In this document: piece after piece, positions 7,611-35,826 of the stretch
How the letters are laid out: every line of letters starts with the position of its first letter
How positions within the stretch are numbered: the stretch's first letter is position 1
NCBI GenBank assembly: GCA_035772785.1
Contig: JAOCPU010000002.1
Location: forward strand, 1-64,000
Source: Phlebiopsis flavidoalba
Lineage: Eukaryota > Basidiomycota > Agaricomycetes > Polyporales > Phanerochaetaceae
DNA length: 64,000 nucleotides
Direction: 5' to 3'
Made by a program: the position numbers and the translations under genes
The notes under the pieces: generated by a model
Seen by the model: the letters and a program-made list of their open reading frames with translations, nothing else
Databases searched by the model: none
Told to the model about the DNA's origin: nothing

Positions 7611-7619
7611 CCGTGTAGT

Positions 7620-13317: not shown

Positions 13318-13568
13318 GCCTTACGTAGATGCGGGTAGAAGTACTTCATTAATTAGTGCACCTGTGTTACATTAATCTTAATGCCGTAATACACTGGCTT
13401 TCATCACATGATCTTGTTTACTGTCGGACTTTGCCGTTCTCATGCTTAACGCGTGAGTAGCTGTTTCACCCTGCAGTTATAAGTCCAGTATGTCCTATCC
13501 CCACAGCTACCCCATTCCCTCGTCTGTGCTCCCCACTCTCTACATACCATCTCTATTCACGCCTCCAA

Positions 13569-15089
13569 TGGTCAAGAAAAAGCGAGCCACCACACCCGTT
13601 CTCAAAAACCACTCATCTGCGGTGGTCTCGGCGTATGAAGTTTGACCTCACAAGCGCAGACGCGTTATCGAGACAACAAGTGAGGTCTTCCTCGAGGATA
13701 TACTTGGCGATTTGGATCCCCTTCCCCCTTGACCCTGCGACCGTCGCTCAGAATGAGCTTGGTGACATTGACTTCAGCACTGGTGAAACGGATAGTCTGG
13801 GTACGGAGAACATATCACGCGACATTTCTGTTCAGGCCATTTCGAAGGCAAAGCGATACGTGAATTCAGTGAGTGATCTCAGCAATAGCTGGCTCTATAC
13901 TTTATTAATCCATGGTCAGGATGTCCCACTCTCTAACCTGGCTTCAATACCGTCCTGAGTACCTCGATGAGCTACTTCGCGTCAAAGGTTGTGCTCACAA
14001 GGCCACCGGCTGTTCAACGTGTATTTCAAGCGACGCTCCGTACCGGTGCATCGATTGCTTTGGTCTCAACTTACTGTGCTACGATTGCTGTCGCCAACAG
14101 CACCACGAAGCAGCCCCTTCATCGCATCGAAGTGAGTGATCTCACATCTTGCATCTGCACGCGTTATTGATACTTTGGACAGCGGTGGATACTCCGGTCG
14201 CCATTTTGCACGTACAACCTTGGCCAACATTGGATTGGGCAGTCCGGTTCGGTCACGACGGCGACGAGGGCCTGCATCTACCCAATCGAAAAAGAAACTC
14301 GTCGTTATCCACGTCAACGGCATGCATCACATCACAGCTATCTTCTGTGGCTGCAACAGCAGCCTTTCCATTCGCCAACAGCTACTGCGAGTGACGTATT
14401 TTTCTGCAACGCCCCTGGACCCCGAAACTTGTGCAACATTTGAACTCATGCGACTGTTTCACGGCCTCAACCTGCAGGGGAACCTCACGGCGTACGACTT
14501 CTTCTATCGCTCATTGGAGATGCTGAGTGATGGCTGGAAAGGGAACAAGCTTCCAGTGCGTACCACCCGTGTTTCTTTGCTCACCAATGCTTGCGCCGCT
14601 CACGCTTTTATCTAGGATCGTCGACAAACGTTCATGGTCATGGTACGGGAATGGCGCAACCTTCAGCTGCTAAAACGGAACGGCTGTGGGACACAACCCC
14701 GATGGCCTCAGTGCTATTGCACCCGGATCACTCGCTGTGCCCTGTAGGGCTTGCCTTCACCCCGGTATCAACCTGCTGATAGATGGGAAGACGTTGCACC
14801 CAATCATTCGTAGGTGTCGTGTTATGTCATTGGTAGATATGATCCTCGACTTACATCTAATAAGTTTCATCTACCAGCAAGTCATCTCTACAGACTGTAA
14901 TTTCCGCGTGAAGAATCGATATCGCTCAACTAAGAAGCCTGACATCTCGTTGTCAAGCGGATGGTCCTATTTTGTCAAATAGGCCAAGTATATTGCACAC
15001 GTCTCACGGTTTGCATCGCAGGAAGAGGTATGCTGTCTCTCTGCAGCGCCTCGTGTACCAGGCTGACTTCAGACTCCTTGTGTCTCAGA
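13569..15089 (+). pseudogene. KDZ transposase, N-terminal part with CxC2 cysteine cluster
   Basis: This is the first part of a Kyakuja-Dileera-Zisupton (KDZ) transposase. The ATG at 13569 gives MVKKKRATTPVLKNHS. IETTSEVFLEDILGDLDP follows in a shifted frame, and an intron at about 13870-13919 is clear. The CxC2 cluster follows: WLQYRPEYLDELL, then CSTCISSDAPYRCIDCFG, LLCYDCC and Q-P-LHRIE. Downstream are RTTLANIGLG, VNGMHHITAIFCGC, TPLDPETCATFELMRLFHGL, VREWRNLQLLKRNG and IAPGSLAVPCRACLHPGINL. Then comes STDCNFRVKNRYRSTKKPDI, which holds the first catalytic Asp of the RNase H-type core, and KYIAHVSRFASQEE. A 61-nt intron (15028-15088) precedes the next exon, which is interrupted after ATGA by the element at 15093. 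Several single-base frameshifts are present. Confidence 0.85.
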
Positions 15090-15092
15090 TGA

Positions 15093-18000: not shown

Positions 18001-18391
18001 GGTTTGAAGCACAATATAACGAGGACTGAATGAGCTTCTAATAGAATAACAAAGTTCTACCATTTAATCATTGGATAATAGTGAATAAACAAGCAAATAA
18101 CAAATTAACAAAATACAATTGGCCGAACTACCAAAGAATGAGTGTATAATGGGTCAATAACAAAGTAACAAAATAACAATGCTTGAACCATAAAACAATG
18201 AGGAATGAATAGCTTGATAACAAAATAACAAAATAACGGCAGAGTAATTGCCAAATAACAGAGATCTAACATCAATAAGAAGATTTAAAACAAAATAACG
18301 GAGCATTAATACATCTTTAAGACCCAGTTAAGACAAAATAATAAATTTCCCTTAAATAATCTTAATTAAGGATTGAGTGGTTTTTGTGATG
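15093..18391. mobile_element. 3.3-kb TIR element inserted in the KDZ gene, 3-bp target duplication TGA
   Basis: The left end CATCACAAAACCACTC is matched in reverse complement by the right end (18376-18391, GAGTGGTTTTTGTGATG). TTAATTAA-rich inner ends continue the inverted repeat for about 40 bases. TGA flanks both sides (15090-15092 and 18392-18394). Removing the element and one TGA restores ATGAGTACATGTGCAGG, the KDZ exon start reading MSTCAGFQALNLANV. Subterminal zones carry many ATTATTTGG-type words on the left and CAAATAAC/AACAAAATAAC words on the right, as in CACTA-like elements with 3-bp duplications. No transposase is recognised inside. The superfamily is uncertain because the ends are not CACTA. 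Confidence 0.85.
15440..17210 (-). repeat. GC-rich, internally repetitive core of the 3.3-kb element
   Basis: This core contrasts sharply with the AT-rich flanks of the same element. Its open minus-strand frames reflect diverged repeats: TAEHHTKPAAAAATPSVSTT and VAEHHRTSAAAAVSAST are copies of one unit, and GHYEHTPRRTCD parallels GQYEHRALGDTR. I regard the ORFs as by-products of a GC-rich repeat rather than as a protein gene, though a repetitive coding gene cannot be excluded. Confidence 0.45.
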
Positions 18392-20162
18392 TGAGTACAT
18401 GTGCAGGTTTTCAAGCCCTCAACTTAGCGAACGTGAAGAAAGCAAAAGGGTTGAGCTCGACGGGCGTTGTTGCATGCTCGTGTAGGCATGAGCTCTTTCG
18501 ACCGAGAGCGGTATCGGCGATCTCCAGCGCGGCGAACGGTTAGTCTTCCCATTGCAACCACGTTTGATATCTTGCTCACAGCTGTGGGATCCCTTTAGCT
18601 TCTGTAACGTCGACTTTGTATTCTCATCTACGGCCGCTGATATCGTGGCAAAACGTCTTGTGGCCACGTACGACATCGCGTGCCAGTACTTCACTAAGTA
18701 CTGGGAACGCATGCTCAAGTTGCCCGCGGAACTCCATCTCAAGATCAGACCCAAGAGATCTCATCGCCAAGGTGCCCAAGGCACATCTAGAGGTCCATCA
18801 AGCTTCCTGTCGCGGAACATACTCGCTGAACTACACGGACGGCGTCGGTCGAACGGACGGCGAAGGCGTCGAGCGACTTTGGGCCTGGCTCAACAAAGCA
18901 GCGCCAAGCGTGAAGGAGATGGGCCCGTCGTCACGTCGCGAGACAGTCGATGACTTTTGTGGCTTTGCCGGCTGGAAGAAGACTCTCAATCTTGGTGAGC
19001 TATCAATACTTGTCACGAGGCTGATGTTGTGCTAACCGCACCGATACGATTTTAGACAACGAGCTCTGCCGCAAGTTACTCGAAGCAATGCGTGAGGCCG
19101 CCATCCATTCTGAAGAGTTTTTCATGCTCGACGCTCGTCTTCGTCACCAGTATCCGGCCCAGGTACAAGAGTGGGAGAGACTTATCTCGGAATGGGTAGC
19201 CGACCCCAGCAAGCCTTGTCCCTATCTATGGGAGGAACACAGTAAGTTTGGATACAATCGTCTAGCACTTTATGCTGATTTTGCTTTATCGCTGCAGGTG
19301 TCACACTTGCTGATGTACGCGACCAATTGGCGGAGCAGGAGGAGCGTGACGCTGGCCCGGTAGATACAACTCGCGCGAGTCCACAAAACGTCAGCCCTAT
19401 CATTTGTGGGACTCGGCCTCGAGATTGAGCGCACGCAGTAAGTTGGACCCTCAGAACACGAGGTACACCCTATCTGACTTGTCGCAGGCGATTGCTCGCC
19501 ATAGACGTACTTGCAAATCCCGTCGTCGTCGTCACAGAGCGTTGTCACACGGAGCAACCGACGAGACCGACGAAGAGCCCTCTGTAAGAAGATCATTGAG
19601 TTTCGACAAGCGCAAGCCATACACATGCCTGGGATTGAGGCACGAATCCAATTCGCAGCAAATGGCTCAGTCGTCGGCGCTGCGGACGAGCCTGAAGATG
19701 TTGCGCTGTACCTTCCGTCTTCGCCCAATCTCTCTTCCGTGCGCTCTAGCATCTGTTCGGAAATCGGCCGCATCTTCTCGGGATCGAAGCTCAGCTGCGC
19801 GAGGCTCAAGCACACAAGGCGTTAGACGACCTCCGTTGAAACCTCCGCCGCACTAGGACATTCGCAAATAAATTTACGAAGACCCACGTCACTGGCCAGA
19901 GAGGCTAAACACCCGGGCGCGGAGTTGGCAGGCTACCATCGATAGAAGGGCTTCAGAGGCCGGCGCGCTGTTTATCGTCTTGCGCGCGATAAGCATGCGG
20001 CTCTTTCTGGAGCTTCGCGGCCCTGGGGGGGCTTGGGAAGACCTGTTTCCCACTCTCAAAGGAGACGACGACATCCGCTCGATCAACGAGCTCGTGCATT
20101 GACGCGCAGAGGAAAAAGAATAACGCGCCGACCTTTACGGAAGGAGGTCGCGCCTTCCAGAG
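18392..20162 (+). pseudogene. KDZ transposase, central catalytic part
   Basis: It continues the KDZ gene after the inserted element: MSTCAGFQALNLANVKKAKG, then TGVVACSCRHELFRP, then the core motif VATYDIACQYFTKYW with a catalytic Asp. A frameshift near 18755 leads to LIAKVPKAHLEVHQ, then NYTDGVGRTDGEGVERLWAW, whose Glu is catalytic, and SSRRETVDDFCGFAGWKKTL. Later exons give REAAIHSEEFF, ISEWVADPSKPCPYLWEEHS, VTLADVRDQLAEQE and KKIIEFRQAQAIHMPGIEAR. Then come ALYLPSSPNLSSV and APTFTEGGRAFQR, which stops at the hAT-like insertion at 20163. The missing C-terminus is at 33128-33754 on the opposite strand. Frame changes and a few stops are present as written. Confidence 0.87.
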
Positions 20163-20906
20163 TAGTGTTTTTTAGGGTCCGGTCCGGTCCCCGGTCCTTT
20201 GACGCCATTTTGCTAAGGCCACCACGGCGGGGGAACCATTTGACCCATTGACTGAGAAGACTAGAGAACCTGCCTTAGGACCGGGACCCAGTATGTCTCA
20301 GGACCGGACCAAGACTGCAGTCCTGGTCTTTATATGGTCCTACAGCAGTCCTGGACTGGTTCAGGTACTGGTCTGGGACTGCTGTCAGTCCAGACCAGTC
20401 TGTGACCGGTTCAGACCAGTCTTTTCTACTACATCTCATTGTTTTACAGGCTAGAACTATGTTTACCCCCAGTAAAATTGCTGTTAGTACATAGATGGAT
20501 ACATGACAATATGACAGCAGTATATAAATCAGTTATGATGACATGCAAAAGTAGCACAGGTATCATATTCTATGCTAGTTAAGGTATGTAGAAGAGTGCC
20601 CAGTGATAATATAGTATCACATTCAAGTTGTAGAAGACTCTAAGTCATCTAAAGAAAGGTCTTTCTAGCTAATAAAGCTGTTAACCCCATGTTATAGCTG
20701 TTCATATGTGGCTAGTTAAGGACCAGTCCTTGACCAGTCTGGGACCAGTCCGACGGTCCTAGGCAATTAGCACATTGGATAGGACCAGGACTTGGGACTG
20801 TGACCGGACCAGCTTGGACCAGGACTGGCAAGCGGTCCTAGGCAGTCCAGTCTCAGTCCAAGTCCCGGTCCCAAGCTGATCCTGGGACTGGACCCTAAAA
20901 ACACTA
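20163..20906 (+). mobile_element. hAT-like non-autonomous element, copy A
   Basis: Ends TAGTGTTTTTTAGGGTCC and GGACCCTAAAAACACTA are inverted repeats, with inner arrays of GGACC/GGTCC and CCAGTC words. It is closely related to 33763-34461 in reverse orientation. It has no ORF. Left flank TTCCAGAG (20155-20162) lies inside KDZ coding sequence; right flank is A then GGGGCGGC (20908-20915). The two flanks differ from each other but match, in reverse complement, the left and right flanks of copy B. A hAT assignment is inferred from the 8-bp duplications. A stretch of roughly 50 bases near 20215-20270 is absent from copy B. Confidence 0.9.
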
Positions 20907-20907
20907 A

Positions 20908-21352
20908 GGGGCGGCCGTCTTGTCCAGCACCGAGTGGCGCAACGCACCGGCCAGGCCGGTGTAGTAGGTGCTGGTGGCCTGCCACCACTTCGACACACCG
21001 GAGACCGGCACCTGCGCATGACGCACGTTGTTGTTCACCACATTGAACTTCTTTTCGTAAAACAAGGCCTTCCGGCCGAGCTTCACCGCCGCGGTGGTCA
21101 GCAGAGTCATCGGACGCCACCGACGACCCCACTATCCGACGCAGCCCAGTTTTTTCGACGTTGTCGTCGTCGTCGTAGTCGTTATGCGCGGGAGAGCCCA
21201 TCGCAGAGGGGCCCTGTCGAGCCGGAGGGGCGGCCACGCGAGCTCGCCGATCTCGTGCGTCGGGGCTGCGGATCCTCGAGGCCAACGGTCAGACTGGGTT
21301 CCGATGAGCAGCCGGGCGCCGGGATGGCGATCGACGACGGGGACCACCAGAG
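20908..21352 (-). pseudogene. Unidentified retrotransposon-like coding fragment
   Basis: The minus strand is open with a biased composition: RITTTTTTTTSKKLGC in one frame, and LLTTAAVKLGRKALFYEKKF, then VSKWWQATSTYYTGLAG and ALRHSVLDKTAAP in another. If the inversion is undone it runs into 34462 onwards, which ends at a polypurine tract and an LTR. I therefore infer that it belonged to an LTR element, perhaps its Gag. No family motif is recognised. Confidence 0.3.
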
Positions 21353-21571
21353 CATGTAGCCGTTATATATAATGGACTATCTTTCTAACAGCCTGCATTG
21401 CATTATCGGGCTTGGGCTCAGTGGCAGCCGTAATGCCCTGTATTCTAGAATGGGGGGGGTCAAAACCAATATTGTAGCCATCACTCAGGGCATCCTAAAC
21501 ATACCAGAATGGTATGTTTTGATGGGGAACTGGAGGAGCTATTCGCAAAATACATTTTCCAGAAATATCCG

Positions 21572-22111
21572 GTTGACTGAACCACGGAACCGTGGGTCCG
21601 ACCCATGGGCCCGACGGTGGGTCCGCTAGCGCCGTGACCGTGATGGTTCCTCAGACGCCTGATGCCCACAAGGGCCACCGTGCCAATATTGTGGACTGTG
21701 GCCAAAGAGAAAATAGTAAATGTGCATGTATTTGCATGACGTATAGCTGCCATTTTATTACTTATACTACTCGAAAGCCTTCAGACACATTGACGTTCAA
21801 CTCTAAGTATTGTTTGTATCTGGCAGTTTATGTGACAGGTGAGGTCGCTGTTACATGCGTGATAGTGACCGGGCACACTGAAGTTCTTCACGCATTAATT
21901 GTACGCTCACATTCCAGTGTTCTCTACAGCTTTATTTACAAAATCGCGCATGGTGTCGAGCACGGTATAAGGTACCTCTCCTCGCGTCGGTGGCGTCAAG
22001 AACACTGTGGACGGGCATTCAAGCGTCTGAGGGCCACGTGCGGCACACAGGCATCACAGGACCCATCGACGGGCCCATGGGTCGGACCCATGGTTCCATC
22101 GTTCAGTCAAC
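21572..22111. mobile_element. 540-bp MITE nested in copy 2, target duplication CCG
   Basis: Ends GTTGACTGAACCACGGAACC and its inverted partner (right end reading inward GTTGACTGAACGATGGAACC) continue through a shared TGGGTCCGACCCATGGGCCC block, giving about 50 bases of inverted repeat. CCG occurs at 21569-21571 and 22112-22114. The interior holds no gene; the 241-codon ORF across it is judged spurious. Confidence 0.85.
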
Positions 22112-24064
22112 CCGACGCTCTCACATTTTTCGGAGCCCGACTCTTTTTTCGTAAAATAAGCGCCCGAATGCGGGAAAGTGCGGCTGGTTCCTGGGCCAGG
22201 CCCAGGGGCTGCCACTTGCCTGATTTTGGCTCAGAATTGATGGCAATCCGCTTCCCATCAATTCCGCTTTTGGGCTGCATTTGGGATTGCTCCCCAGCTT
22301 CCCCCTTGCTTATTTAGGGCGCTGTATTGTATTTTGAGTACCTATGTATGTTTAGAACATGATCACTCGAACAGAATTCCCATATTTGGCCTGTCAGGGG
22401 TGCTACCAATATAATCCGATTTTATTTCGCTTTTTTCGCGATTTTCAATAGGGTACCCTGGGTTCCCCTGCATTCCCCTGGCCCTGCTGCTTCTCGTTTA
22501 AGCTTCTATATGTTCTCTGAGTATGCCCATAACATAGGAACATCATCTGACACATTCCCATTATCCTGGAATTGTTTCGATATTTCCGGGTATTTTCGAA
22601 ATCTGGGGGTCTGGGCATTGCTTCCTATTGATTGGGAATTGTTCTGAGCATTTCCCCCATGTGTAGATACACCATTTAGAAGTATTCCCATCATGTAGAT
22701 CAAAGGATTTAACATGATATGCATGTTTGAGAACATATTTTTTGCGGAAATTGATGGCTACTCCCCCTATACCCTCCAGATAATAATAATCTGCTATTTT
22801 GAGCGGATGGAAAGTGCCCTATAGGTGTCTAGTACATGCAGATAAATTGTGGAAGCAAGGGGATGGCTGTAGCTAGTGTGATTTCCCAGATCTTGGTCGA
22901 TTATCCTGGCGCTTATTTTCGGATTTTAGGGTTAAGCTCAAATCATAGTATTCCAATACAATTGAAGCTTAGCTGATATCTCCATCGTATTCTACACCCC
23001 TGAAAACCCTTATATCCAAATTTGCGAAAGGACAAGATCCTGGGAACATGTACAGGCTGTCAGAGCATAGAAACAGACAGGAAGTTGTATAATTGTACAG
23101 AGATTCATGTTAACCCCATGCATTCTCTTGTAACACTAGCACATCTTTTCACCCACTTGGGGGATTGATGTAAACTAAATTGTAGCATGTGTGGGAGGTA
23201 TGTAGGATGTGTTCTACAGCTGGAATAGAATTATACTGCTCTGTGTGTGAATAGGTGCACATGTTTTCGCTTTTTTTAACCCTAAATGACGCTTTATTTT
23301 GGGTTTAAAGGGCTGCAGCACCTGGGGAGGTTGTTCTAAACCTTCAGAACTAATTCTACACATGTCCCTACATACATGGAGTATATAGACAACATCTAGA
23401 AGGTATCCCACCGCTGTAGAGCCCAGGGGTAAATGCGCATTTTCGCTTTTATGCTGGGTACCCTATTTTGGGGTATATATCAGGGTGTAGCAGCATGTAC
23501 TGTATTGATCCCCTGGTATTCCAGTGTTGTATGTACATTATCCCAATGCTATATGAATATCCTAGATAGTTACAACGACCCCCGAAGACCAATAATACCC
23601 CCAAGGGAACCTGCCCAAATATTATTTTTCCGCTTTTCCCCAGAATAATATATATCCCTATTGTTCCCATGTGCTTGGATAGCTCCCAAACTTGATTTCT
23701 GTAATGCCCCAATGTATGCCTATACAATGGCAAGCATACCGCTCATTTTTAAGCCCCCATTCCCCCAGGGTATACCCCCCAATGTGCCATTTGACCGCTT
23801 TTTTATTAATTATTATAGTATTTATTTTACTGTGGGCCCTGCACATCATGGAACCTCTCAAAAATCAAGATCTGAGCTCCACAGATGTATATCTATGTAA
23901 CCTACATGAAAGAATGGAGGGGGAACGAAGGGGGAGGGCAGGAATAGCAGCAGAAATGGGCAGGAAAAGCGGAATATAATGCCAGGAGCTGGCCCATCAA
24001 GATCTAATCTATTTTGATGGAAGCAAGATCTGGGGAAGCCTATCTGGAAGCAGGCACCATCAGT

Positions 24065-24469
24065 AGAGGTAAGCAATTCTAAACGGGCCCCCCAGCTCGC
24101 ACCGTCGTGAGCGTGGTTGAACCGCTATCCGCTGATGGTGGCTGCGCTGGGCCAATTTCCCGGCGACCTCTCGCACATGGGCGCCCGACCGGCTTTGAAA
24201 TTCAGGTTTCGTTCTGTGGGGCCCTTTGAGTAGTGGAACCCCCAATGTTTTTACATTAAACACAAGTGATACCACTTCTCATTACCATCGTTCAAAAAAT
24301 CATCCTTACACTGCGCTTTGTGCATGCACAACAGGCAGGCCGCCGTAGAACATAACCCTATGCAAAGCTGTGCTAATCCACACGCTCCAGCCGCCACCAT
24401 CAGCGGAGAGCAATTTATCCCACCTCTCGAGAGCTCGGCTGGGGGGGAGGTTTAGAATTGCTTACCTCT
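24065..24469. mobile_element. 405-bp MITE nested in copy 2, target duplication AGT
   Basis: Perfect 20-bp terminal inverted repeats, AGAGGTAAGCAATTCTAAAC at the left and its reverse complement at the right. AGT flanks both sides (24062-24064 and 24470-24472). The empty site is seen in copy 1, where the corresponding sequence reads TTTGTGGCACTGATGGTG without the insertion, which fixes the borders exactly. The interior is non-coding. Confidence 0.93.
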
Positions 24470-24799
24470 AGTGCCACAAAGCTTTTGATGGGAAACCGGT
24501 TCCTGGCGCTTTTTGAGCGCTTTTTTCCGCAATTCCATGAGGTTTGCATATTGTAGAAAACTCTATTTTGCCTCATAGCTCCCTCCCATCAAAACATATG
24601 ACAAAACTGTTTAACTGACATATGGTTTGTTTTGATGGCTCTACCACCCAGAATATTTTCGGTATTTTTCGACATATAGCTATCCCCCATTCTTGAATAT
24701 GGGGGGGATAGTGAAACATACTGCCACTGAGCCCAAGCCCGATAATGCAATGCAGGCAGTTAGGAAAAGATAGTCCCATAATACATAACGGCTACATGC

Positions 24800-25271
24800 A
24801 CGCCTGGGGGGACGAGCGATACCCGAGGGCGGGGGCCTGCCATCCGGCTCCCCGCGGCGGCGAGGCGTCGCCAAACCGACGGCGAGGGCTACGGCTGCGG
24901 GCACGGGACGTGCGACGCCGCTAAAACGTCCTCGAGAGCGCAGCGAAGGCTCTCAATCTCCGCGGTGGCGTTCGTCCAGATCGTACTCCAAGTTGTCCAC
25001 GGCGCGGTTAGCGCGGCGCAACGCCTCCCACCGTGTCTTGCAGTTCGACGTCCCGCGCGCGAAGTTCTCACGCTCAACTCGTCGCGCTCCAACTCGAGGG
25101 CCGCAACCTTGAGCTCGCGCACCGCGGCCGCCTCCTGCAGCGCCTTCCGCTCACCCCGGAGTCGGTCCAGGTCGCGCTGTGCGAGCGGGGGCCGCGGCAG
25201 CAGGCACTGGGTAACAGCGGGCGGCGGGGGCGCCGGCGTACCGAGTGGCCTGGTCGGGCGCGGACAGAGCC
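24800..25271 (-). pseudogene. Coiled-coil protein fragment, possibly Gag of an LTR element
   Basis: The minus strand reads PLAQRDLDRLRGERKALQEA then ELKVAALELERDEL, with heptad-like Leu spacing and alternating charge typical of a coiled coil, after a Pro/Ala-rich lead. Shifted frames continue it (RARDVELQDTVGGV). It lies just beyond copy 2. With the element removed and the inversion undone, it would precede the 21352-20908 fragment and the LTR at 35590 in one reading direction. A Gag-like role is inference only. Confidence 0.35.
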
Positions 25272-25383
25272 CTAGGCAACCAAATGATGCATTAACTACC
25301 TCTAGTTTTGCTGTAGAGCGCGATGCATTATTCTCCAGCAAATTTGTGAGGGGCTCTGTAGAGCTATCTGGGTTTGAATCCAA
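25272..25383 (+). repeat. Dispersed repeat, copy 2
   Basis: Related to 1108-1225 through CTAGGCAACC, ATGCATTAA, GATGCATTA, TCTCCAG and CTGGGTTTGAATCC. The last motif fits a tRNA-type B-box, so a SINE-like origin is possible, but no good A-box is placed correctly. Confidence 0.4.
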
Positions 25384-26474
25384 TTGATGCCATTACTGTT
25401 CTAGGATATTAGATTAGATTGAGCTACATTCTGTCTTATCTATGATCTCTACTGCTATCCCATCACACCCGATGTTGTGCGGGGTGCCAAAAAACGCCGC
25501 CTGCCGGCGCTCAGTGCGCCTACTCTTTGTCCTTGTTTGCGCGCACCAGCATCCTGCCAAATTGGGCACGGTCCCGCCCTGCGCCTTGCAGAGGCCCAGA
25601 ATTTTGATCCCGTCTAGGCCTCCCTTGTGGCAGATGGCCGGTATAGCTCACAGACTCTGAAATGCGACTGTATATAGAGTATTATGGAGGGTAGAATTGA
25701 CAGTAGTGAATGCAGATCATGATTAGCCAGAAATTCGTGCATAAATCATGCAGATATTCATATAACCTGTGCAATGCAACCTACCGTGCTTCTATGGGTT
25801 TGTATACATACAATGCTTCGTTACTAGGTGCTTGGGTGGTATTTCAAAGCAATTTGCGCATTACAACTGTCAACTGTCTGAGGCCCAGTGAAAATGAACG
25901 GAAATTGCTCATAAATACGACTATAAAATGGGAACCAGGATGTAAAACTAACAGAAAGCAATGTACAACAAAACAGAGAAAGTGTATACAAGCATAGCAA
26001 ATAGTCCTAAAACTCTGTGGATGAGGTATAGATTGAGAGGAAACCCCCAGAAGAAGAGTACACATTGCAAAGGGTGTACACTGCTCAGGCCAGGTAAGCA
26101 GTCCATAGAGTCAGTGGTATGTCATTTAGGAGCTATTCAGGGCCATTGTATAACTGATCTATAGCATTCCATTGTGCAGACGTGATGCTACAAGGAATAT
26201 GAACAACCTGAGAAGAGAGTAAGGAAAACGGATAATGAACGCTCGCAGAGCGTCGATATTGATATTGGGAAGTGCCAAGTATGTATACACACTGCTAAAT
26301 ACAGCATAGATACCTGTATAGCTGTATATCACCGCGTCGAAAGCGTACAGGAATAAAACGAGCTTTATCAGAACAGGCGCCCATCCGACCGTCGAAGAGA
26401 AGGAGGATTCATCATTCTCCTTGACCGCTGGTCGAAAGGAAACAAGCCCAAATCGCTCAACGGAGGACGTTAAC
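25384..26474. other. No gene recognised
   Basis: A weak minus-strand reading at 26159-26474 (RFGLVSFRPAVKENDESS, then WAPVLIKLVLFLYAFDAVIY) contains one hydrophobic segment but no known domain. The remaining ORFs are short and without motifs. Confidence 0.25.
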
Positions 26475-26500
26475 ATGCTTCCTAGACATATAGGAAGCAT
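26475..26500. other. Perfect hairpin, 10-bp arms
   Basis: ATGCTTCCTA and TAGGAAGCAT are perfect inverted repeats around the six-base loop GACATA. No tail of T follows in either direction. It could be a small element end or a structural RNA stem; nothing decides. Confidence 0.6.
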
Positions 26501-27397
26501 TTACACGTTATCCGAGAGCGACGTGACCTGTGGAGCAAATGTAGGGTGAGATACTCACTCTCTCCATGGGAAGGAATCTAGGACTCGAGCTCCAGCGTAT
26601 TGAATTGACTTTCCTGGTGTCCTGGGAGCCATCTGTGAATGGGTATGTATGTATATAGAATGATATGGAAAATGTTTTGAACGAAACGGACGTAAGCGTA
26701 GGCAGCGCAATGTGAGCGCGAGACCGCCCAGCTCTTGCCGTGACAGGCCCTGCCAACGCCGAGATGCGCCGTATCCACATACCTAGCGGTTTAAAACACA
26801 AGATGCAAGTCAAATTCGTGTTCCCAAGAGTCAGGATAACGGTTTTACTGACCTTCAGTTGCTCCCATCCGGAAATAGGAGGAACGGGAGCATCAGGAAA
26901 AATCCCGTGATTAAGAAAATGCTTCTATGTTGTTACATTGTTAGTTGCTGTTACTAGTGTTATTTGTGTGTTACCTACACTATTCAAGTATTACCTCCAT
27001 TACCTGCTGATTTCTTGATTCCTTGTATGTTCTTGAGCTGTTTCTGGGTTTCTTCCTGTTTCTTCATTCTTTGTTCATTTCCATGCAGTTCATGTTCCAT
27101 TTTTTTCATTCAGCAGCTATTAACACAGTGTTATGTAGCGAATTCTCATTAGCCAGTTTCTTCATAGTTTACTATCTGTTTCTGTTTGGTTACCTGGTTA
27201 ATTCTTGTTCCTTTATTCTTTCTCTATTTGGCAGCAGTTTCCTCATGGTTTGATTGTTAGCTTTCATTAGTTGGTCTTTAGTGAGTTGTCCTAGTGCCAT
27301 TTGTTCAATGTTGAGTATGCCTGAGACATATGCAGATGATTTACAAAGTCCAGACTGTCTTAGTGTTTGGTGTCCTACTACCAAAGCCCCACCCCAG
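26501..27397. other. No gene recognised; T-rich repeats of TTTCTTCC type
   Basis: From about 26990 to 27250 the plus strand is rich in GTTTCTT and TTCTTGTTCC words, a diverged pyrimidine array. The minus strand 26520-26810 has an open frame without motifs. Confidence 0.25.
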
Positions 27398-27523
27398 AAT
27401 CAAACCTATTTAATAATCCAATCAATCAATTCATACCACTGTAGATGATGCTGTACAATTATTATATGAATTAAAACACATTTTATAATCTCTGGAACAT
27501 TAATCTATAAACCAATTGAGCCA
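27398..27523 (-). other. Possible tRNA-derived sequence with Pol III A-box and B-box
   Basis: On the minus strand TGGCTCAATTGG (complement of 27512-27523) fits the A-box consensus and GGTTTGATTC (complement of 27398-27407) fits a B-box. They are about 105 bases apart, too far for an intronless tRNA. No acceptor stem closes, so this is a SINE-like or decayed tRNA candidate rather than a tRNA gene. Confidence 0.25.
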
Positions 27524-30071
27524 AGGCTATCTATGTCAGGGCAGGTCCTCATCGCAGCTGTCCACGTCATGTTTTTTGTCAGCCTGTCACACTGTTCATG
27601 TCAGACTGTAATTTTCCCCGTCGCGTCATTCTTGTTGCGTGTGCGTCGCAGCCGCTGTCCTCGGTCGCACCGGGGTCATTCACGTCAGGCCATGGCTCTC
27701 CTCATCGTGATTGGCCTCGTTGCGTCAAGGATGACTTTCTTGCGCTGCGTTCAGGCTTACCGCCGGGCCGTCCTCGTCGTGCGATCGTCATCCTGTCGCA
27801 GTTATGCCGTGATCGCTGTTGTCAAAGGTCGCGCGTTATATTTTTTTTCTGTCTTCGTTGTGCCCATCTCGGGATCAGGATATCATGGACCGTTGTGTTG
27901 TGGCGAAACATTTAGCCGTAGTGATACTATTATTGTGTCGGGCAAATACCCGCGTCACGCCGTTCCTATCGCGTTTCGAGCGTCTCGGCCGTTTGTTTCC
28001 TGCGATCTGTCTCTCGTTGTGACTCTATGTCGCACTTGGTCATGTAGCTGGGCCGTCGGGGCTGAGGCCGTCGTGCTGCGGTCATCCTTGTCAAGACGTG
28101 GCTGTAATGTCACGGTTGTAATGCCCCCTTTTCCCTCGCGAATGTGTCCCTGTCGCATTGTAGTGCGCTGCTTGCACGCAAAAGTGCGACCAAACGGTTC
28201 GGTCAGCACTGCGTTATAAACTGAGTGAAATTTGGATAGAAAGGAACCCATCTTGGCTCCCATATGCGTCTTCGGGATTCGGATTCGTTTGTGCGCATGG
28301 GAGGGGTCATCTAAGGATGGGGGAGTGGTGGGTTACAGCTGGGAAGGGGTACGTACCTAGGGCGATCGAAGTGGGAGCTCGCGGACTTGCCGCGACGGGT
28401 ATTGAAATGACGAACATCACTTACATACCTTATCTTCAGAGCCCATATGCTCTTGGAGAGCATGTCGGATGTGGATTTGGTTGAGGGCGCGGTCGCGGGT
28501 GTTCAGTTCAGCGTTCGTGCGCACCAGAGAGCTAGTCACACACCTGGACCGACGAACCCACAGGCTCGTTTTCATTCAGCTGGGGCCAGATGGTAGGCCC
28601 TACGCATATAACCAGCGTCGTTTCGATTTCGGGTGAGAGCCAAGTATCCTCACTTGAGGGGCAGATAGGACCGTTGTGGGCGCAGTCGTTGTACCGTGCG
28701 CGTGCTAAACGGCGCCGAGAGGCGAGGGGAAGAAAAGAAAAAAGGAAAAGAAAGATATCAGAGACCTTGGAAGAGGCCCCTGGACTAAAACGAGAGCGAT
28801 GGAGCCGCCGTTCTCCGTGGAACGACGGTAGAGGAGAGACGGAGTTTGCAGCGGGCGCTCCGGACTTGGAACGCATGTCGAATCCTCGACTTGTGGGCGC
28901 AAGCGCCCCACTGTCCGCGCGTCGACTCGCGTCGCGCAAGCGCCTGGTTTTCGACTTTCGTTCCGCCTCCACTATCGGTCGCCGTTCGTGATAACGGCGA
29001 CCCGACTCCATTCTCTTTTGCACAAGAACCTCCAAAGAGGCTCTGGATGGACCGTCCTTTCCATTTCTTACCGCTCGCTCCCAACACGGCACCGGAACGA
29101 CGGCCCACGACGTGACGTTCTCGCCTACCCGCTGCAAGACTTGACCAGCACCTGCTGTCCACGTGCAGAACCAACGCGGTTACGACACTTGCAAAGTGTC
29201 AAGGACGGCTGGGGAGGTGCGCGGGGCGCACAATGCGGCCTCCGGTGGGACGAACGAGGCCTGCGGGCTCGACGGCACAAAGTGAGTACAACCACTGCTC
29301 CGTCGTCTTTGCATGCTGACTGCCAACCATGCGTACTCGTACCGCACAAACGTGCAACGCATGTGCGCAGTAAGCACATCTCGATTCAGTACGCTCGCTG
29401 GCATGCCCCCGCCAGCCCGGTCCCCATTCTTTTGCGCGGTCACGCCCTCCAAGCCGCGTCCTCGCCTTCGAGCCCTCTGCGCTCGCGCCATACTAAGGTC
29501 CAACCCCCGGCCCGTTTGGCCCCTACCCTCCAGCACCGCGCCCGTTTTCACCAATCTCTTCAGCCCGCCTATGACGCTTGTGCTCGCACCCCTGCGCCCC
29601 TACGCTCAAGCCCAACACATCATCAGCTCCAGCCCTCGTCCCCGCGCCATCCCTCCCCCTGCCCTTTTGTAGCGCGTGCCGATTGGCACTCGCCACCTTC
29701 CTCACACGTGTACTTGGGTCACGACTCACCGACACCGTTCCACGCCACCATCACCGTTACTGTCACCACGGCACCTACGCACTTGAGGAACGAGACATTG
29801 ATAGTTCCTTCAAGAAGGACTAAAAGGACAACAAGAAATACAAGATTAAAAAAGGTAAGCCAAGACAGGCAGGGAAAAGAGGGAGAGAGCTAGCACAAGT
29901 GATGTTAAAAGGATTGATTTCATTTGCATTGAGCTGCTCTTGTATCTGTATGCTACATCCTTGGAATAACAATGCAAGTTTGCATAAATACTGTGGTGAA
30001 ATATGAGTGCATTAAGCTGGTACCCTAAGAAAGAAACTAACTGAATTACAGACAAACTAGAAAACAGTGGA
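27524..30071. other. No gene recognised
   Basis: Long overlapping ORFs in several frames between 28530 and 29890 (up to 301 codons) are rich in Arg, Ser and Pro, lack domain motifs and overlap on both strands. I read them as products of GC-rich composition. The segment 27540-28230 is equally unassigned. Confidence 0.3.
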
Positions 30072-30270
30072 ACAGCCAGGAAATAGCTAGGAAACACTCA
30101 GGAAACACTCAAATCAGAGAACACATTAACACTGAAAACTAGCAAACATATGAAGAAACATAAATAACAGTCAAGAAACCACCAAGAAAAACATCCAGGA
30201 AACACCCAGGAAACACCCAAGAAACACCCAGGAAACACCCAGGAAATACCAGGAAACACCCAGGAAACAA
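30072..30270 (+). repeat. CAGGAAACACC minisatellite
   Basis: Near-perfect 10-11 bp units CCAGGAAACA are tandem at 30195-30270, with degenerate units (CAGGAAATAGCTAGGAAACA, CTCAGGAAACA) back to 30072. The minus-strand ORF reading FLGVSWVFLG is a by-product of the array. Confidence 0.85.
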
Positions 30271-30564
30271 ACTAATATATGACCCTTGCAAAGTTTTTGC
30301 TTCCTAACCATTACTTTCATTAGTTGTGTTTCCTGGGAGTTTTTTTGTTTAAAAATGCTTCTTATTGGCCTGGATTTTCTGCTGATGAGGTGGATACTAA
30401 AGCCGGAACGAGGAGAGAATGCACGGAGAATAAGGTCAATATAATATTTTTCAGAAACGCGTGGGGAAAGACTTACTAGTAGCTTCCCAGAATTCCCCTC
30501 GACCCATCCCGAAGTGATGCGCAAGCCATTCCGAGAACGGATAGAGCGGGAGAGCACCGTTTGA

Positions 30565-31580
30565 GGTCGCCCCGAGGCTGCCCGAGGCGACCCAGAAGTC
30601 GCCCGAGGGCTGAAGCGCTCAAGTGCGCTTGTCCCCGAACCACAACTCACGACCACCGTTCTCGTGAACGGCGGTCTTCTGCCTTTATTACGATGCCCAG
30701 GACTCTTCTATGGGGAGTCCTGGCGTGGTTTCATTCTGTTTTTTTCTCAATTCGGGGTCGGCCGACCGGCGACGCGCGTCGCCCAAACTGTGCGCCGAGC
30801 CACCGTGACCCACGGCGACATCGACGGCGACTCACGACGCCTCAACAGCGTCGGAGGACGCTGGAGCAGTGCACTCGGTGCATGCTCCAACGTCCTGGCA
30901 GTTTTGTGCGCCTGCGGGCCCTCAGGGAAAAGGTGCGCGACTGTCTGTACCAGCCCAACGACCGCGACCGCTGACCGCTCTCGTGCCCGTCACACCGCGT
31001 GGAGAACGATGGCAATCGTTCTCCACATATAAAGGTACATGGCATACCCGTGCGCTTATGTATACTAACCTCTGTTGTACCTTCTAGACGGCCGGCACCA
31101 GCGTCGCCCTTCTCCCACCCTCGTCGGTACAAAACCAACACCAGCACGGTAATAATGCGTCAGAAGCGACGCATTATGGAAGATTATGCATTCGTAGTGC
31201 GTACAGAGATGTACGCGCCTATGTTTGCACCGACCGCGCCGTGCCCCAGTTCCGTTCGTCGGTCGCCCCCCTGCCGATCCCCGCTTGCGTACCACCGCCC
31301 GCCCCGCTGACCCCTGCCCCTATAACCTGCGTCAGAAGCGACGCAGGGCCCGCAGTCCGCGCCACGTCACCAGCCGTTCCATATGGACAACTCAGGAGGG
31401 CTGTCGAAGGCTTCCGCCTACCGGCTTCTGCGCGACCCCCCCGCGCTTCACGAGCCCGTACTCCCCCGCCCCCGCTGCATCATCGGACGATGCACCAACT
31501 GCGCACAGATGAGAGGGAAGACCGCCAATCGAGGTCCGTGCACCACGACGACTATCGTGCACGCACGACAACCGTGTCGT
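30565..31580. other. Cluster of about twelve DNA hairpins and palindromes
   Basis: Inverted repeats sit at 30565-30592, 30613-30630, 30651-30676, 30697-30723 (9-bp arms), 30756-30767, 30768-30783 (GGCGACGCGCGTCGCC), 30856-30895 (stem of about 17 bp with bulges), 30999-31026 (12-bp perfect arms, loop GGCA), 31152-31177 (10-bp arms), 31199-31216, 31326-31347 (8-bp arms), 31476-31494, 31538-31562 and 31565-31580. The stems differ in sequence. The pair at 31152 and 31326 share the stem core TGCGTC and loop AGAAGC. Weak ORFs cross the region but none has a known domain. Confidence 0.75.
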
Positions 31581-32414
31581 CCACCGCCGTACCCCTACGC
31601 CTCGCGCGGCCTCGTGTCCGGTCCAGCGCGCGTACCCTATCGGTCGCCGCGCCTGGGATGCCCAGCCGCCGGCCCACGCGCCCGCGGTCATCGCCGCCGC
31701 CACCGCCCCCGCCCTGCGCCCTGCGCTGCCGCCGCCCGCCGCCCGCCGCACTGTCGCTGCCGCCCGCCCTGCGCCGCCGCCACCCCCCGGCACGCCGCGC
31801 TGCCGCCTCCCCAGCCGCTCGCCTGTCACGTTAAACTAATAGTATACTAGCATCTTGTAGTATAATTGACAATGTATATAGTATTAATAAAGAAAGGGGC
31901 GAAAATGCCCCTAAAAAACCCTAAAATAATCGAGGCGGCCGCGCTGCGCCATATCGAGGCGTCCGTCGGTGATGCGCCACGATCCGCGGGCGGCAGGTAT
32001 GTTATCAAGGCGCGCGCCTTTTTTTTTTTTTGGTAGCGAGATAACAGCCAGATAACAGCAGCGGGCTGCTATCAAGCTATTATCAGGCCAGGCGTGCATG
32101 TAGGGATTTTCAAGAAAACCCCTGGGGATGGTAGAAATTGGCTTATGAAACCGCTGGCAATTTTTTGGCGCTCGCGGGCTTGATTTGTGGGCAGCGCGCC
32201 GTTTGAAACAGTCCCACAGGGCCAACGGGAGCTGCCAGGCAGCTTTCACAAATCATAACCATTTCAAAAATTCTACCTAAGGGCTAAATACTAAGGTACT
32301 GCAGGACAAACGTTTAGTTACACGGGCGGGCGGGAGGCGCGTAGCGGCCGATACGGCATACTCGATGCATACGGCGCGCATTGGGCACGGCCTGCCGGCG
32401 GGGCAGGCTTATCT
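31581..32414. other. No gene; very GC-rich tract then old repeat remnant
   Basis: Bases 31660-31830 are almost only G and C (CCGCCGC words), giving chance ORFs in all frames. A T-run at about 32021 is followed by sequence at 32105-32175 that is related to 1305-1375. Confidence 0.35.
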
Positions 32415-33085
32415 GTGAGCGTCCAGGACGGCGCGCTCGGGGCATAAACTCGGGGCGCGTTGGTGCACTCGGGACGGCGCACTCGGGGCTGGCGGTGCGG
32501 ACGCGGTCTGGGACGGCGCTCTCGGGCTGGGCGCGCGGACGCGTCTGGAACGGCGCGCTGGAGCAGGGCACGTCCGGTGCCGGGCATGCAGGCGCGTCTG
32601 GGACGGCCGCGCTCGGGCGGTAAAAACAAGCCACGTTCTGGGGCGTGGGCGGAAAGACCGGTGCGCGTCTGAGACGGCGCGCTCGGGCTGGGCGTGCGGA
32701 CGCGTCTGGGACGGTGCGCGCTCGGGCTGGGCGGGAGGAACGCTGCGTCTGGGACGGGCGCGCTCAGGGGCTAGGGCGTGCGGACGCGTCTGGGACGGCG
32801 CGCTCGGGCAGGGCGTACGGCGGACGCGTCTGGAACGGCGCGCTGGGGCAGGGCGCTGGGCGGGGGTACGCGGGTGCACACGTTTGGGACGGCGTGCTTG
32901 GGCAGGGCAGGCGGAGCGCGGGCAGATGCACCTGAGACGGCGCGTTGGGCGGGTGTGTGTGGGTATATTTGGGGTGGGGTGCTGGGGCGACGTGGACGGT
33001 GCGTGCGGACGAGACGTGTAGGTACATGCGCTGGGGCAGCGTGCGTAGATGCACGCATTCAGAACGGCGCGCTGGGGCAGGTAGA
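32415..33085 (+). repeat. GC-rich minisatellite, unit about 40-50 bp
   Basis: Variant units of the form GGGACGGCGCGCTCGGGC, GGGCGTGCGGACGCGTCT repeat at least ten times, with spacing changes and partial units. The array stops about 40 bases beyond the KDZ stop codon (33128, minus strand), so it lies just 3' of the transposase gene. ORFs on both strands inside it are repeat artefacts. Confidence 0.85.
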
Positions 33086-33127
33086 TTTAACAAGAGGGCC
33101 AGAAACAGGAGCAATAGATAACGTACC

Positions 33128-33754
33128 TCACAGCTCAGCATCGAGCAGACCTTCCTCTTCGATGCCGTCGAGGTTCTCGTCTTCGTCTTCGTCTTCGTCG
33201 ATAATGACCTCGAGAAATACGGGGGTTCTGATGGGAGGTGGAGGTCTCTGCTCTGTCTGTAGGCCAGCTTTGCCTCGCGTCTGCGCGATCTTGACGAAAT
33301 CTTGTGCAGCCTGCTGTACAGGCCCAAACTTAGCCTTCCATCGGGTCCGCCAGTGCCCGTTCGGCAGCCGCATGCTCTGAAGAGTATGCACTTAATCCCT
33401 CAAGCAACGCCGGCTCCATGCCCGATGCCCGAACGTCGCTGCGCTTGCTCGTCCCACCACTGTGCTCTCCATTCGCAGTACGCGATAGCTCGGCGCATCT
33501 CCTCATCGACGAGGATGATCTCCTCTAGCCATCGCGAGCACTGTGCCTTGGCTTTGGCCCATTCAATACACAAAGCTGAGACATCAAGGTTAGCTGAGAA
33601 GAGTATACTTCTAAGGACTAGCTTACTGGTGTGCATTTGGACATCATCTTCAGCCTCGCTTTTGCCGCTAGGTAATAGCCATATCCATGAAAGCGTGCGA
33701 CGGCCTTCGCCAATCGACACACCTTTCTGGACAGGCATGCCAAAGACTCCCCTC
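33128..33754 (-). pseudogene. KDZ transposase, C-terminal part displaced by inversion
   Basis: The minus strand continues the KDZ protein of 13569-20162. From the hAT-like copy B it reads RGVFGMPVQKGVSIGEGRRT then LSWIWLLPSG. A 50-nt intron (GTAAGC..TCTCAG) and LCIEWAKAKAQCSRWLEEI follow, then DEEMRRAIAYCEWRAQWWDE, the family's usual C-terminal helix. Shifted frames give PALLEGLSAYSSEHAAAERA and RWKAKFGPVQQAAQDFVKIA. The acidic tail IIDEDEDEDENLDGIEEE ends at the stop at 33128. Joined at TTCCAGAG to 20162 the frame runs on (GRAFQ/RRGVFG), which shows these were one gene. Frameshifts lie near 33415 and 33350. Confidence 0.87.
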
Positions 33755-33762
33755 CTCTGGAA

Positions 33763-34461
33763 TAGTGTTTTAGGGTCCAGTCCCAGGACCAGCTTGGGAC
33801 CGGGACTTGGACTGAGACTGGACTGCCTAGGACCGCTTGCCAGTCCTGGTCCAAGCTGGTCCGGTCACAGTCCCAAGTCCTGGTCCTATCCAATGTGCTA
33901 ATTGCCTAGGACCGGTCGGACTGGTCCCAGACTGGTCAAGGACTGGTCCTTAACTAGCCACATATGAACAGCTATAACATGGGGGTTAACAGCTTTATTA
34001 GCTAGAAAGACCTTTCTTTAGATGACTTAGAGTCTTCTACAACTTGAATGTGATACTATATTATCACTGGGCACTCTTCTACATACCTTAACTAGCATAG
34101 AATATGATACCTGTCTACTTTTGCATGTCATCATAACTGATTTATATACTGCTGTCATATTGTCATGTATCCATCTATGTACTAACAGCAATTTTACTGG
34201 GGGTAAACATAGTTCTAGCCTGTAAACAATGAGATGTAGTAGAAAAGACTGGTCTGAACCGGTCACAGACTGGTCTGGACTGACAGCAGTCCCAGACCAG
34301 TCTGAACCAGTCCAGGACTGCTGTAGGAGGACCATATAAAGACCAGGACTGCAGTCTTGGTCCGGTCCTGAGCATACTGGTCCCGGTCCTAAGGCAGTCT
34401 CAGTCCTGGTCCTAGCAAAATGGGTCAAAGGACCGGGACCGGACCGGACCCTAAAACACTA
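33763..34461 (-). mobile_element. hAT-like non-autonomous element, copy B
   Basis: Ends TAGTGTTTTAGGGTCC and GGACCCTAAAACACTA, 699 bases, the reverse complement of copy A (20163-20906) over its whole length apart from a stretch of roughly 50 bases. Left flank CTCTGGAA (33755-33762) is the reverse complement of copy A's left flank. Right flank GCCGCCCC (34462-34469) is the reverse complement of 20908-20915 beside copy A. It has no coding capacity. Confidence 0.92.
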
Positions 34462-35555
34462 GCCGCCCCCGAAGTGGTTCGCTGCCTCACCCGCGGGTCT
34501 GGCCGCCGCCGCCGGCGCGTCCGCAGCCTTCCCTGGCTGAGCGAGTTGCGCCCCGGGCGCGGCGCAAGGGAGGAGGGGTGCCCGCCACATCGGCTCGTGC
34601 TGCCCGCATCCCGCAACTGCTCCCGCCTCCCAAACCCCACCGATTTTTACTGCCGGCCTGGACTTCTTTCGCGTCGACAACATGACATCCGCACTGACGT
34701 CAACGGAGCAGCTACGGTTCCCTCGCACTGTGGACGAAAACGGTGCGGATGATGGCCGAGGCCAGGCGCCGCCCAACCAGTTCGTGGCCCTTCGCTTCTT
34801 CGGGCTCTTTAGTCGCGCAGTGTACTCGAACGAGGATGGGATCGCGACTGAAGCCGCCCGCGGAATTACGCCGATACGCCTGGACACGCCCCACATGGCA
34901 AACGACTCGACTCAGGGATACGGCGGCTCCAGCACGGCACGTCACGGCGGAAAGCGCGTCCAGCGTAACACCCGCGACGGGCAGCTCGGATCCCCCGGCT
35001 GTGGGGATGGAAGTAGACTCCGATCGGACGTGGTGATGAAACCCAAGCGAAGACCCACGGCTGGACCGACCGCCGCGCGGCACCCCAGCGCAATATACCC
35101 GCCTGCTGGGACAGATCCCACCAAGACGAGATCGCCAGGTTCGTTCATGGCTGAAGGCATCGTCCCCGGGGGAATATTCCGTGGCGCCCCTGGACCCGGA
35201 TTCGCAGGTGTCACTCGGGACCAAGATGCGCTCCTCGGACTGCTATATCTCATCGAGTTGGCCGGCCTCAGCCAGAACCCCGCTGAGGCGTTACCAATTC
35301 CTTAAGATTGCACCCCGAGGTGTCGAGTCGACCGGGGTTCACCAAGTTCAAGTGTCGGAGGTTTCTCAGCTGCGTCCGTTGCGCACTGTCGACGATTCAT
35401 CGATCGTCGATTGGCTCAAGGCTCTAGAGCGCGCGCAGCCGGAATACGAGAACGCCCCGGCCATGAAGTCACTCAACCAGTCTCTGTTCGGTATCAATGC
35501 CTGGATGCACAACATTCACATTGAAAGCGTCGACTTCGAGGTCGACAACGCATAG
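34462..35555 (+). pseudogene. Unidentified coding remnant upstream of an LTR
   Basis: Two long frames occur: 34682-35305 (RTVDENGADDGRGQAPPNQF, later GIVPGGIFRGAPGPGF) and 35181-35555 (DDSSIVDWLKALERAQPEYE, then SLFGINAWMHNIHIES). They overlap and look like one protein with a frameshift. The stop at 35553 lies 24 bases before a polypurine tract and LTR, the place of the last ORF in an LTR element. I recognise no protease, polymerase or integrase motif, so it could be a Gag-only non-autonomous element. Confidence 0.4.
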
Positions 35556-35578
35556 TCGCCTCCGCGCCGCTTCGGCTT

Positions 35579-35589
35579 AGGGGGGAGGG
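35579..35589 (+). promoter_or_regulatory. Polypurine tract
   Basis: AGGGGGGAGGG lies directly against the 5' TGT of the LTR at 35590, the position required for priming plus-strand DNA synthesis in LTR retrotransposons. Confidence 0.65.
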
Positions 35590-35826
35590 TGTAAGGCGCG
35601 CAGGGCTGGGCCGGCGCTAGCGCCGCCCCAGACCCTGACACAGCATGCGCCCGCGGCTTGATTTGGTAACTCCGCCTCCTTCCTTTTCCGTCACAAACTA
35701 TACAGTCCATCATTTGTATTTAAGCAGCCGGCCAGCCACTTGGGCTGGCCAGATCTTTTACACGCTGCACTCGATTCGTTGAATACAACGCGGTCAAGTT
35801 CAGCTCGAGAGATCTAAGTTCTTACA
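35590..35826 (+). mobile_element. LTR of an LTR retrotransposon (237 bp)
   Basis: It begins TGTAAG and ends CTTACA, a perfect 6-bp terminal inverted repeat. It contains a TATA-like GTATTTAAG at about 35718 and is preceded by a polypurine tract. I found no second copy in the window, so it is either a 3' LTR whose partner was lost or moved, or a solo LTR. No clear primer-binding site follows. Confidence 0.65.

What the first reader, a model, noticed from the sequence alone, without database searches (positions are those of the whole stretch)
20155..34469. 12.9-kb inversion between two hAT-like copies, proved by swapped target duplications and a split transposase frame
Seen: copy A (20163-20906) and copy B (33763-34461) are inverted repeats. 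The left flank of A is TTCCAGAG and the left flank of B is CTCTGGAA, its reverse complement. The right flank of B is GCCGCCCC and 20908-20915 beside A is GGGGCGGC, again its reverse complement (one extra A intervenes). Each copy lacks a matching duplication of its own. That is the outcome expected when recombination between two inverted copies flips the DNA between them. Independently, joining 20162 to the reverse complement of 33754 keeps the KDZ transposase frame open (GRAFQ/RRGVFG..GEGRRTLSWIW). Inference: copy A first inserted in the KDZ gene, then 20907-33762 inverted.
Basis: partly seen in the sequence, partly recalled or inferred. Interest (0 to 1): 0.9.

Follow-up and report, generated by a model that had tools for sequence, protein, structure and literature searches.

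The report
Jumping-gene-flanked DNA flip, probably fungal
A 12.9-kb piece of a probably fungal chromosome appears to have been flipped between two near-identical copies of a small jumping gene that swapped their insertion scars; this is a known way for chromosomes to rearrange, seen here unusually clearly, though an assembly error is not ruled out.

Summary
The flank pattern is exact: two inverted ~700-bp hAT-type elements (A 20163-20906, B 33763-34461) carry exchanged 8-bp target duplications. Of 13 family copies with both ends defined, 10 have their own perfect duplication; among 728 pairs of end readings only A and B match across copies. Contig C40, a 69% paralogue, runs through the left site without an element or duplication. 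Contig C72 gives moderate support for the un-flipped order on the right, with one small block out of place. The interrupted locus has a KDZ domain; two long elements with the same ends have hAT dimerisation domains. An inversion of 20907-33762 is well supported, its mechanism is not. Outside a block private to A, A and B differ at 2 of 670 sites, against at least 20 in 45 of 45 other pairs, so one-step hybrid-element insertion fits about as well as recombination between copies. An insertion-rich stretch adjoins the left junction, and an assembly flip would give the same signs. Verdict: a clear new example of a known kind of rearrangement.

The parts
20155..20162 (+). TTCCAGAG, left half of target duplication 1 (partner at 33755-33762)
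   Evidence: in paralogue C40 the site is present once, undivided, with 7 of 8 letters the same
20163..20906 (+). hAT-type short element copy A; ends TAGTGT...ACACTA
20907..20907 (.). extra A between copy A and the flank; 1-bp insertion or sequencing error (inference)
20908..20915 (+). GGGGCGGC, inverted half of target duplication 2 (partner 34462-34469)
20907..33762 (.). inverted segment, 12,856 bp
   Evidence: exchanged duplications; un-flipped order in C40 and, more weakly, C72
33755..33762 (-). CTCTGGAA, inverted half of target duplication 1
33763..34461 (-). hAT-type short element copy B, reverse orientation to A
34462..34469 (+). GCCGCCCC, right half of target duplication 2
18408..20162 (+). 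upstream part of the interrupted KDZ gene region; KDZ domain at 18745-18963, weaker pieces 18304-18498 (two stops inside) and 18600-18728 (below the cut-off)
   Evidence: C40 match, 68.6%; PF18758 hits
33168..33762 (-). downstream part of the same gene region, moved and inverted
   Evidence: continues the C40 alignment (C40:307581-308164) directly after 20162
25071..25192 (-). block found elsewhere only in C72 in that search, there (4007-4130) in un-flipped orientation directly beside the homologue of 34542-35826
34542..35826 (+). block right of the inversion, 94% to C72:4120-5391
19761..20162 (.). insertion-rich stretch against C40 beside the left junction; may be raw-read-like quality or real decay
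   Evidence: 13 insertions and 0 deletions in 19732-20162, stretch chosen after seeing the list

Best explanation
A short hAT element inserted in a KDZ transposase gene region, duplicating TTCCAGAG. A near-identical copy lay about 12.9 kb away in inverse orientation, flanked by GCCGCCCC, probably after a local hop. Crossing-over between the two inverted copies flipped 20907-33762, so each copy now holds one half of each duplication and the gene region is split over both ends. Shown: exchanged duplications, element family, split gene region, un-flipped order at the left site in a paralogue. Inferred: that the flip is real in the organism, and that homologous recombination rather than transposase joined the ends.
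For: Exchanged 8-bp duplications at A and B only: no other cross-copy match at one mismatch or fewer among 728 pairs of end readings (26 ends, right ends read at two offsets), and 10 of 13 copies have intact own duplications. Joined DNA 18400-20162 + rc(33100-33754) aligns to C40 as one match of 2434 columns, 68.9%, straight across the join; the two separate flank searches meet in C40 in the register of the 8-bp duplication. C40 follows, in blocks over about 15 kb, window 1288-20165 and then, reversed, 33760-33168 and 32269-32087. C72 has 25192-25071(-) directly beside 34542-35826(+), the un-flipped arrangement, and the first of these was found only in C2 and C72. hAT dimerisation domain inside both long elements with the same ends (C12). 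275,713 bases of window and (overlapping) loci hold no N, which suggests gapless contigs.
Against: No chimerism is visible: outside alignment columns 66-130, 2 of 670 sites differ, 0 of 248 in the middle third. Delprat et al. give identical copies as the mark of hybrid-element insertion. C72 is not fully collinear: a piece of 25266-25187 sits at C72:1131-1203, between the homologues of 2-1099 and 1100-1247. An insertion-rich stretch adjoins the left junction. No strain with the un-flipped order could be searched. The pre-insertion site of duplication 2 was not found: the C72 match starts 80 bp right of B.
Confidence: 0.45

Rival explanations
1. One-step hybrid-element insertion (sister-chromatid transposition). 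A single element sat in the KDZ gene region. After replication, transposase paired the right end of one sister copy with the left end of the other and inserted both at GCCGCCCC about 12.9 kb away. The product is X-TTCCAGAG-element-inverted segment-element-GCCGCCCC, the observed structure, with two identical copies at the breakpoints.
For: A and B differ at 2 of 670 sites outside a block private to A, while 45 of 45 pairs of ten other copies differ by at least 20. One event explains the second copy, its orientation, closeness and identity, and both duplications (inference). Delprat et al. state that this model gives an outcome strikingly similar to ectopic recombination, except that the copies are identical. 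Related reactions of the hAT element Ac are described in maize (PMC8225341, passages).
Against: A recent local hop plus recombination, or gene conversion between close inverted repeats, also gives identical copies. No intact transposase was shown; in the long elements only the dimerisation region passed its cut-off in the pieces scanned.
Confidence: 0.35
2. Assembly flip: in the organism the segment is in un-flipped order and each copy has its own duplication. The assembler passed wrongly through the ~700-bp inverted repeats.
For: A flip by the assembler predicts the same exchanged duplications and the same un-flipped order in paralogues. Beside the left junction, 19732-20162 has 13 insertions and 0 deletions against C40, against 19 and 33 in the rest of the aligned region (p=2e-5, stretch chosen after seeing the list). 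A has 7 private insertion events, B 1. The window is at the start of its contig.
Against: A contig of 3.28 Mb and no N in 275,713 bases point to long reads, which normally span 700 bp with unique flanks (inference). A's private insertions are not odd by number: C87 has 8 and C23 19, and with all 8 private substitutions of A counted the insertion excess is not significant (p=0.13).
Confidence: 0.15
3. Two unrelated insertions with chance flank matches; no inversion.
For: None found.
Against: Chance of both matches about 3e-9; homology to C40 continues across the join.
Confidence: 0.01

Closest known systems
Galileo-generated inversions of Drosophila buzzatii (Delprat et al. 2009, PMC2775673; passages and section 10 part 1 of 2 read)
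   Same: Two inverted copies of a DNA transposon at both breakpoints, with exchanged target duplications; single target copy in un-inverted sequence.
   Different: P-superfamily element with 7-bp duplications there, hAT with 8 bp here. There the copies are shown to be chimeric; here they are nearly identical and no crossover can be seen. There un-inverted chromosomes of the same species were sequenced; here only paralogues within one assembly.
Ac/fAc inversions by reversed-ends transposition at maize p1/p2 (PMC8225341; passages read)
   Same: hAT superfamily, 8-bp duplications at inversion junctions, an element at each breakpoint.
   Different: There the fragment between two directly oriented elements is lost. 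Here C40 shows no loss at the left site, and both duplication pairs are accounted for.
Hybrid element insertion / sister chromatid transposition (as described in PMC2775673 and PMC8225341)
   Same: Predicts two identical inverted copies with exchanged duplications in one step.
   Different: Not observed in action here; transposase activity untested.
[quoted passage not shown] 2002; only its citation in PMC8225341 seen)
   Same: Rearrangement by non-standard transposition of a DNA transposon in a fungus.
   Different: impala is a Tc1-mariner element; the paper itself was not read.

Membership tests
hAT superfamily (elements A and B) | 8-bp target site duplication | tested here: met
   10 of 13 copies with both ends defined have a perfect own 8-bp duplication; A and B share theirs crosswise; C87 lacks a perfect one
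hAT superfamily (elements A and B) | Short terminal inverted repeats of hAT type (TAGTG...; consensus recalled, from no call) | tested here: met
   TAGTGT...ACACTA at the two ends of the 13 copies, which were chosen by that end
hAT superfamily (elements A and B) | Transposase with hAT dimerisation region in an element with the same ends | tested here: met
   PF05699 in C12 (1.8e-13; 661395-661571) and in C22 (505924-506070), both inside elements with the same ends and perfect 8-bp duplications
hAT superfamily (elements A and B) | Intact RNase H-like catalytic domain in the autonomous partner | not tested
   Only some stop-to-stop pieces were scanned with Pfam (4 of C12, 3 of C22); no catalytic domain matched
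KDZ transposase gene (interrupted locus) | KDZ domain PF18758 | tested here: met
   C2:18745-18963, 2.9e-20; 18304-18498 weaker with two stops; 18600-18728 below the cut-off; C40:306045-306425, 1.4e-18; CxC2 PF18803 in C40, 8.1e-23
Inversion by ectopic recombination between transposon copies | Exchanged target duplications at two inverted copies | tested here: met
Inversion by ectopic recombination between transposon copies | Chimeric copies | tested here: inconclusive
   Copies too alike to show a crossover: 2 of 670 sites differ outside columns 66-130
Inversion by ectopic recombination between transposon copies | Un-inverted parent or relative carrying both copies | not testable with these tools
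   No relatives of this genome are held; only paralogues without the elements were found
Hybrid element insertion | Two identical copies with exchanged duplications | tested here: met
   apart from A's private insertions and block; not exclusive to this model

The most novel reading that the evidence does not exclude
A short hAT element made the whole inversion in a single transposase reaction, by hybrid-element insertion between sister chromatids, leaving two identical copies with exchanged duplications. This would be a natural case, probably fungal, of a reaction described for maize Ac/Ds and Drosophila P elements.
Probability: 0.33. Interest if true: 0.55.

Novelty: new member of a known kind. 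Interest (0 to 1): 0.35.

Why it matters
If real, it is a base-pair-exact record of a small transposon reordering a repeat-rich contig end that is probably fungal, with an in-genome witness of the earlier order, and recent enough that the copies are still almost identical. It offers a direct test between passive recombination and transposase-driven inversion: whether un-flipped relatives carry two copies or one. It is not a new kind of system.

Tried and rejected
Frame argument: rejected. Open frames across the second join were not used, because several frames on both strands are open in this GC-rich DNA. The 67- to 73-aa frame beside the right duplication (minus strand) was searched in the genome (only itself), in the protein collection (no homologue) and in Pfam (none), so it could not serve as a witness for the second site. 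C72 could not give base-level proof of the second site: its match starts at 34542. Reversed-ends transposition proper was rejected because it loses the segment between the elements and does not explain that 20162 and 33754 were neighbours. Chimera test by thirds of the element: no signal. The private block of A matched only itself, apart from stretches of 12-14 bases, in the sequences then held. Left out of the count of 13 copies: C21 (three bases lost at one end, duplication otherwise present), C33 (only one end clear, no duplication found), and C52, C53, C26 and C89 (no second clear end found in the stretch read). Left out of the shared-column count: C33. Left out of the substitution counts: alignment columns 66-130; with them A and B differ by 9 substitutions and 13 indel events. 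Paper searches whose listings showed no fungal hAT inversion with exchanged duplications: (listings cut at the rows asked for; two papers read in passages); the library lacks most subscription journals.
Full report
WHAT IS THERE. The organism was not identified; KDZ and CxC2 domains and the genome size suggest a fungus (inference). Two copies of one short element lie in inverse orientation: A at 20163-20906 and B at 33763-34461. Each left flank is the reverse complement of the other left flank, and the same holds for the right flanks apart from one extra A at 20907. In 400,000 random pairs of window sites 21 showed such a match with an offset of -1 to +1.

THE FAMILY. The genome search gave 29 matching stretches to A, A itself included; the 16-base end pattern without mismatch was found at 20 places. 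For 13 copies both ends could be set, A and B included. Ten of the 13 have a perfect 8-bp duplication of their own; A, B and C87 do not. I compared 728 pairs of end readings (26 ends, right ends read at two offsets). At one mismatch or fewer, the only matches were the ten own duplications and the exchanges between A and B: left with left at no mismatch, right with right at no mismatch when the extra A is skipped, and one shifted reading of the latter. The exchange is thus specific to this pair. Two longer elements with the same ends and perfect 8-bp duplications, C22 (5.9 kb) and C12 (4.9 kb), contain the hAT dimerisation region PF05699. The family is therefore hAT; A and B, at 0.7 kb, are non-autonomous by size (inference).

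THE OLDER ORDER: LEFT SITE. Contig C40 holds a region about 69% identical to the window. It follows window 1288-20165 in several blocks and then jumps to 33760-33168 and 32269-32087 on the reverse strand. Separate searches with the two flanks put window 20162 at C40:307586 and position 3 of the reversed 33762 side at C40:307581. So the two flanks meet there in the register of the 8-bp duplication, with nothing between. A query of 18400-20162 joined to the reverse complement of 33100-33754 aligned to C40 as one match of 2434 columns. This is an empty site in a paralogue. The locus carries the KDZ domain PF18758 at 18745-18963, with a weaker piece at 18304-18498 (two stops) and one below the cut-off at 18600-18728; C40 has it at 306045-306425 and also has CxC2. 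The element lies downstream of the KDZ domain.

THE OLDER ORDER: RIGHT SIDE. Contig C72 has, in order, the homologues of window 2-1099 (+), 25266-25187 (-), 1100-1247 (+), 30892-30407 (-), 25672-25257 (-), 25192-25071 (-) and 34542-35826 (+). Turning 20907-33762 back makes these collinear except for the short 25266-25187 piece, which is out of place. The best witness is 25192-25071: in a search with 24960-25265 it was found only in C2 and C72, and in C72 it lies directly beside the 34542 block in the un-flipped orientation. The blocks 30892-30407 and 25672-25257 belong to a stretch (25266-32090) that matches dispersed repeats in many contigs (40 of 118 candidates scored), so I give them little weight. 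C72 lacks the 4.2 kb next to the right site and the first 80 bp right of B, so it does not show the empty site itself. Taken together the right side is moderately, not strongly, supported.

THE FRAME CLAIM. Not upheld. Read against C40, the window's matching residues change frame three times within about 125 bases around the join.

MECHANISM. Two mechanisms give this structure: recombination between two inverted copies that already had duplications of their own, or hybrid-element insertion, in which ends from two sister copies of one element are inserted together at a new site. Delprat et al. 2009 (PMC2775673; passages; section 10 part 1 of 2) write that the second outcome is strikingly similar to the first, except that the copies are identical rather than chimeric. 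Here, leaving out alignment columns 66-130 (a block private to A), A and B differ at 2 of 670 sites, with 0 of 248 in the middle third; the 45 pairs among ten other copies differ by at least 20. With that block A and B differ by 9 substitutions and 13 indel events. A and B are sisters in the tree (support 0.933) and share 11 columns found in none of nine others, C33 left out. No crossover point can be found. Identity favours the one-step model somewhat, but a recent local hop followed by recombination, or gene conversion, gives the same. I put recombination at 0.45 and one-step insertion at 0.35.

THE CAVEAT. An assembly flip between 700-bp inverted repeats would show all the same signs. In its favour, from 19732 to 20162 there are 13 insertions and no deletions against C40, against 19 and 33 in the rest of the aligned region (p=2e-5; counts). 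I chose that stretch after seeing the list, and C40 is only 69% identical, so the p-value is flattering. A has 7 private insertion events and B 1. Leaving out the substitutions of the private block, A's insertion excess over nine other copies is significant (7:1 against 43:122, p=0.0008); counting them it is not (7:8, p=0.13), and C87 and C23 have 8 and 19 private insertions. So poor sequence at the left junction is suggested, not shown. Against the flip, no N occurs in 275,713 bases held (overlapping loci included) and one contig reaches 3.28 Mb, so long reads are likely (inference). I give the flip artefact 0.15. Only raw reads or PCR can settle it.

NOVELTY. Transposon-flanked inversions with exchanged duplications are known in Drosophila (PMC2775673), and hAT-driven inversions in maize (PMC8225341, passages). 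The latter also cites aberrant transposition of impala in the fungus Fusarium (that paper was not read). My searches of the held library (listings) showed no fungal hAT case with exchanged duplications, but that library is partial. I rate it a new member of a known kind.

Noticed in passing
21564-22122: A ~560-bp element with 57-bp inverted ends (90-98% to copies in C24, C15, C38 and C72) sits inside another repeat (22406-22123 / 21559-21345) whose two parts adjoin in other contigs, such as C22.
   Followed up: partly
8937-10839 and 22150-24064: Inverted 1.9-kb repeats, 90.5% identical, one inside and one outside the inverted segment; before the flip they would have been direct repeats.
   Followed up: no
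25266-32090: Roughly 6.8 kb that matches dispersed repeats on many contigs at about 67-89%; likely another large mobile element.
   Followed up: no
1288-20165 with C40:294256-309425: About 15 kb of paralogous DNA collinear in blocks; the C40 stretch lies within about 26 kb of that contig's end and the window is a contig start, possibly a subtelomeric duplication.
   Followed up: partly
2-1099 with C72:2-1137: Two contigs begin with the same sequence, 91% identical, which may mark a shared chromosome-end repeat or an assembly break at a repeat.
   Followed up: no
25187-25266 with C72:1131-1203: A short piece of the inverted segment lies in C72 between the homologues of window 2-1099 and 1100-1247, out of order; unexplained.
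   Followed up: no
20910-21128 (-): Single-copy open frame of about 67-73 aa ending at the right-hand flank of A, with no homologue found.
   Followed up: yes
32471-32962: GC-rich, imperfect tandem-like repeats in the inverted segment.
   Followed up: no
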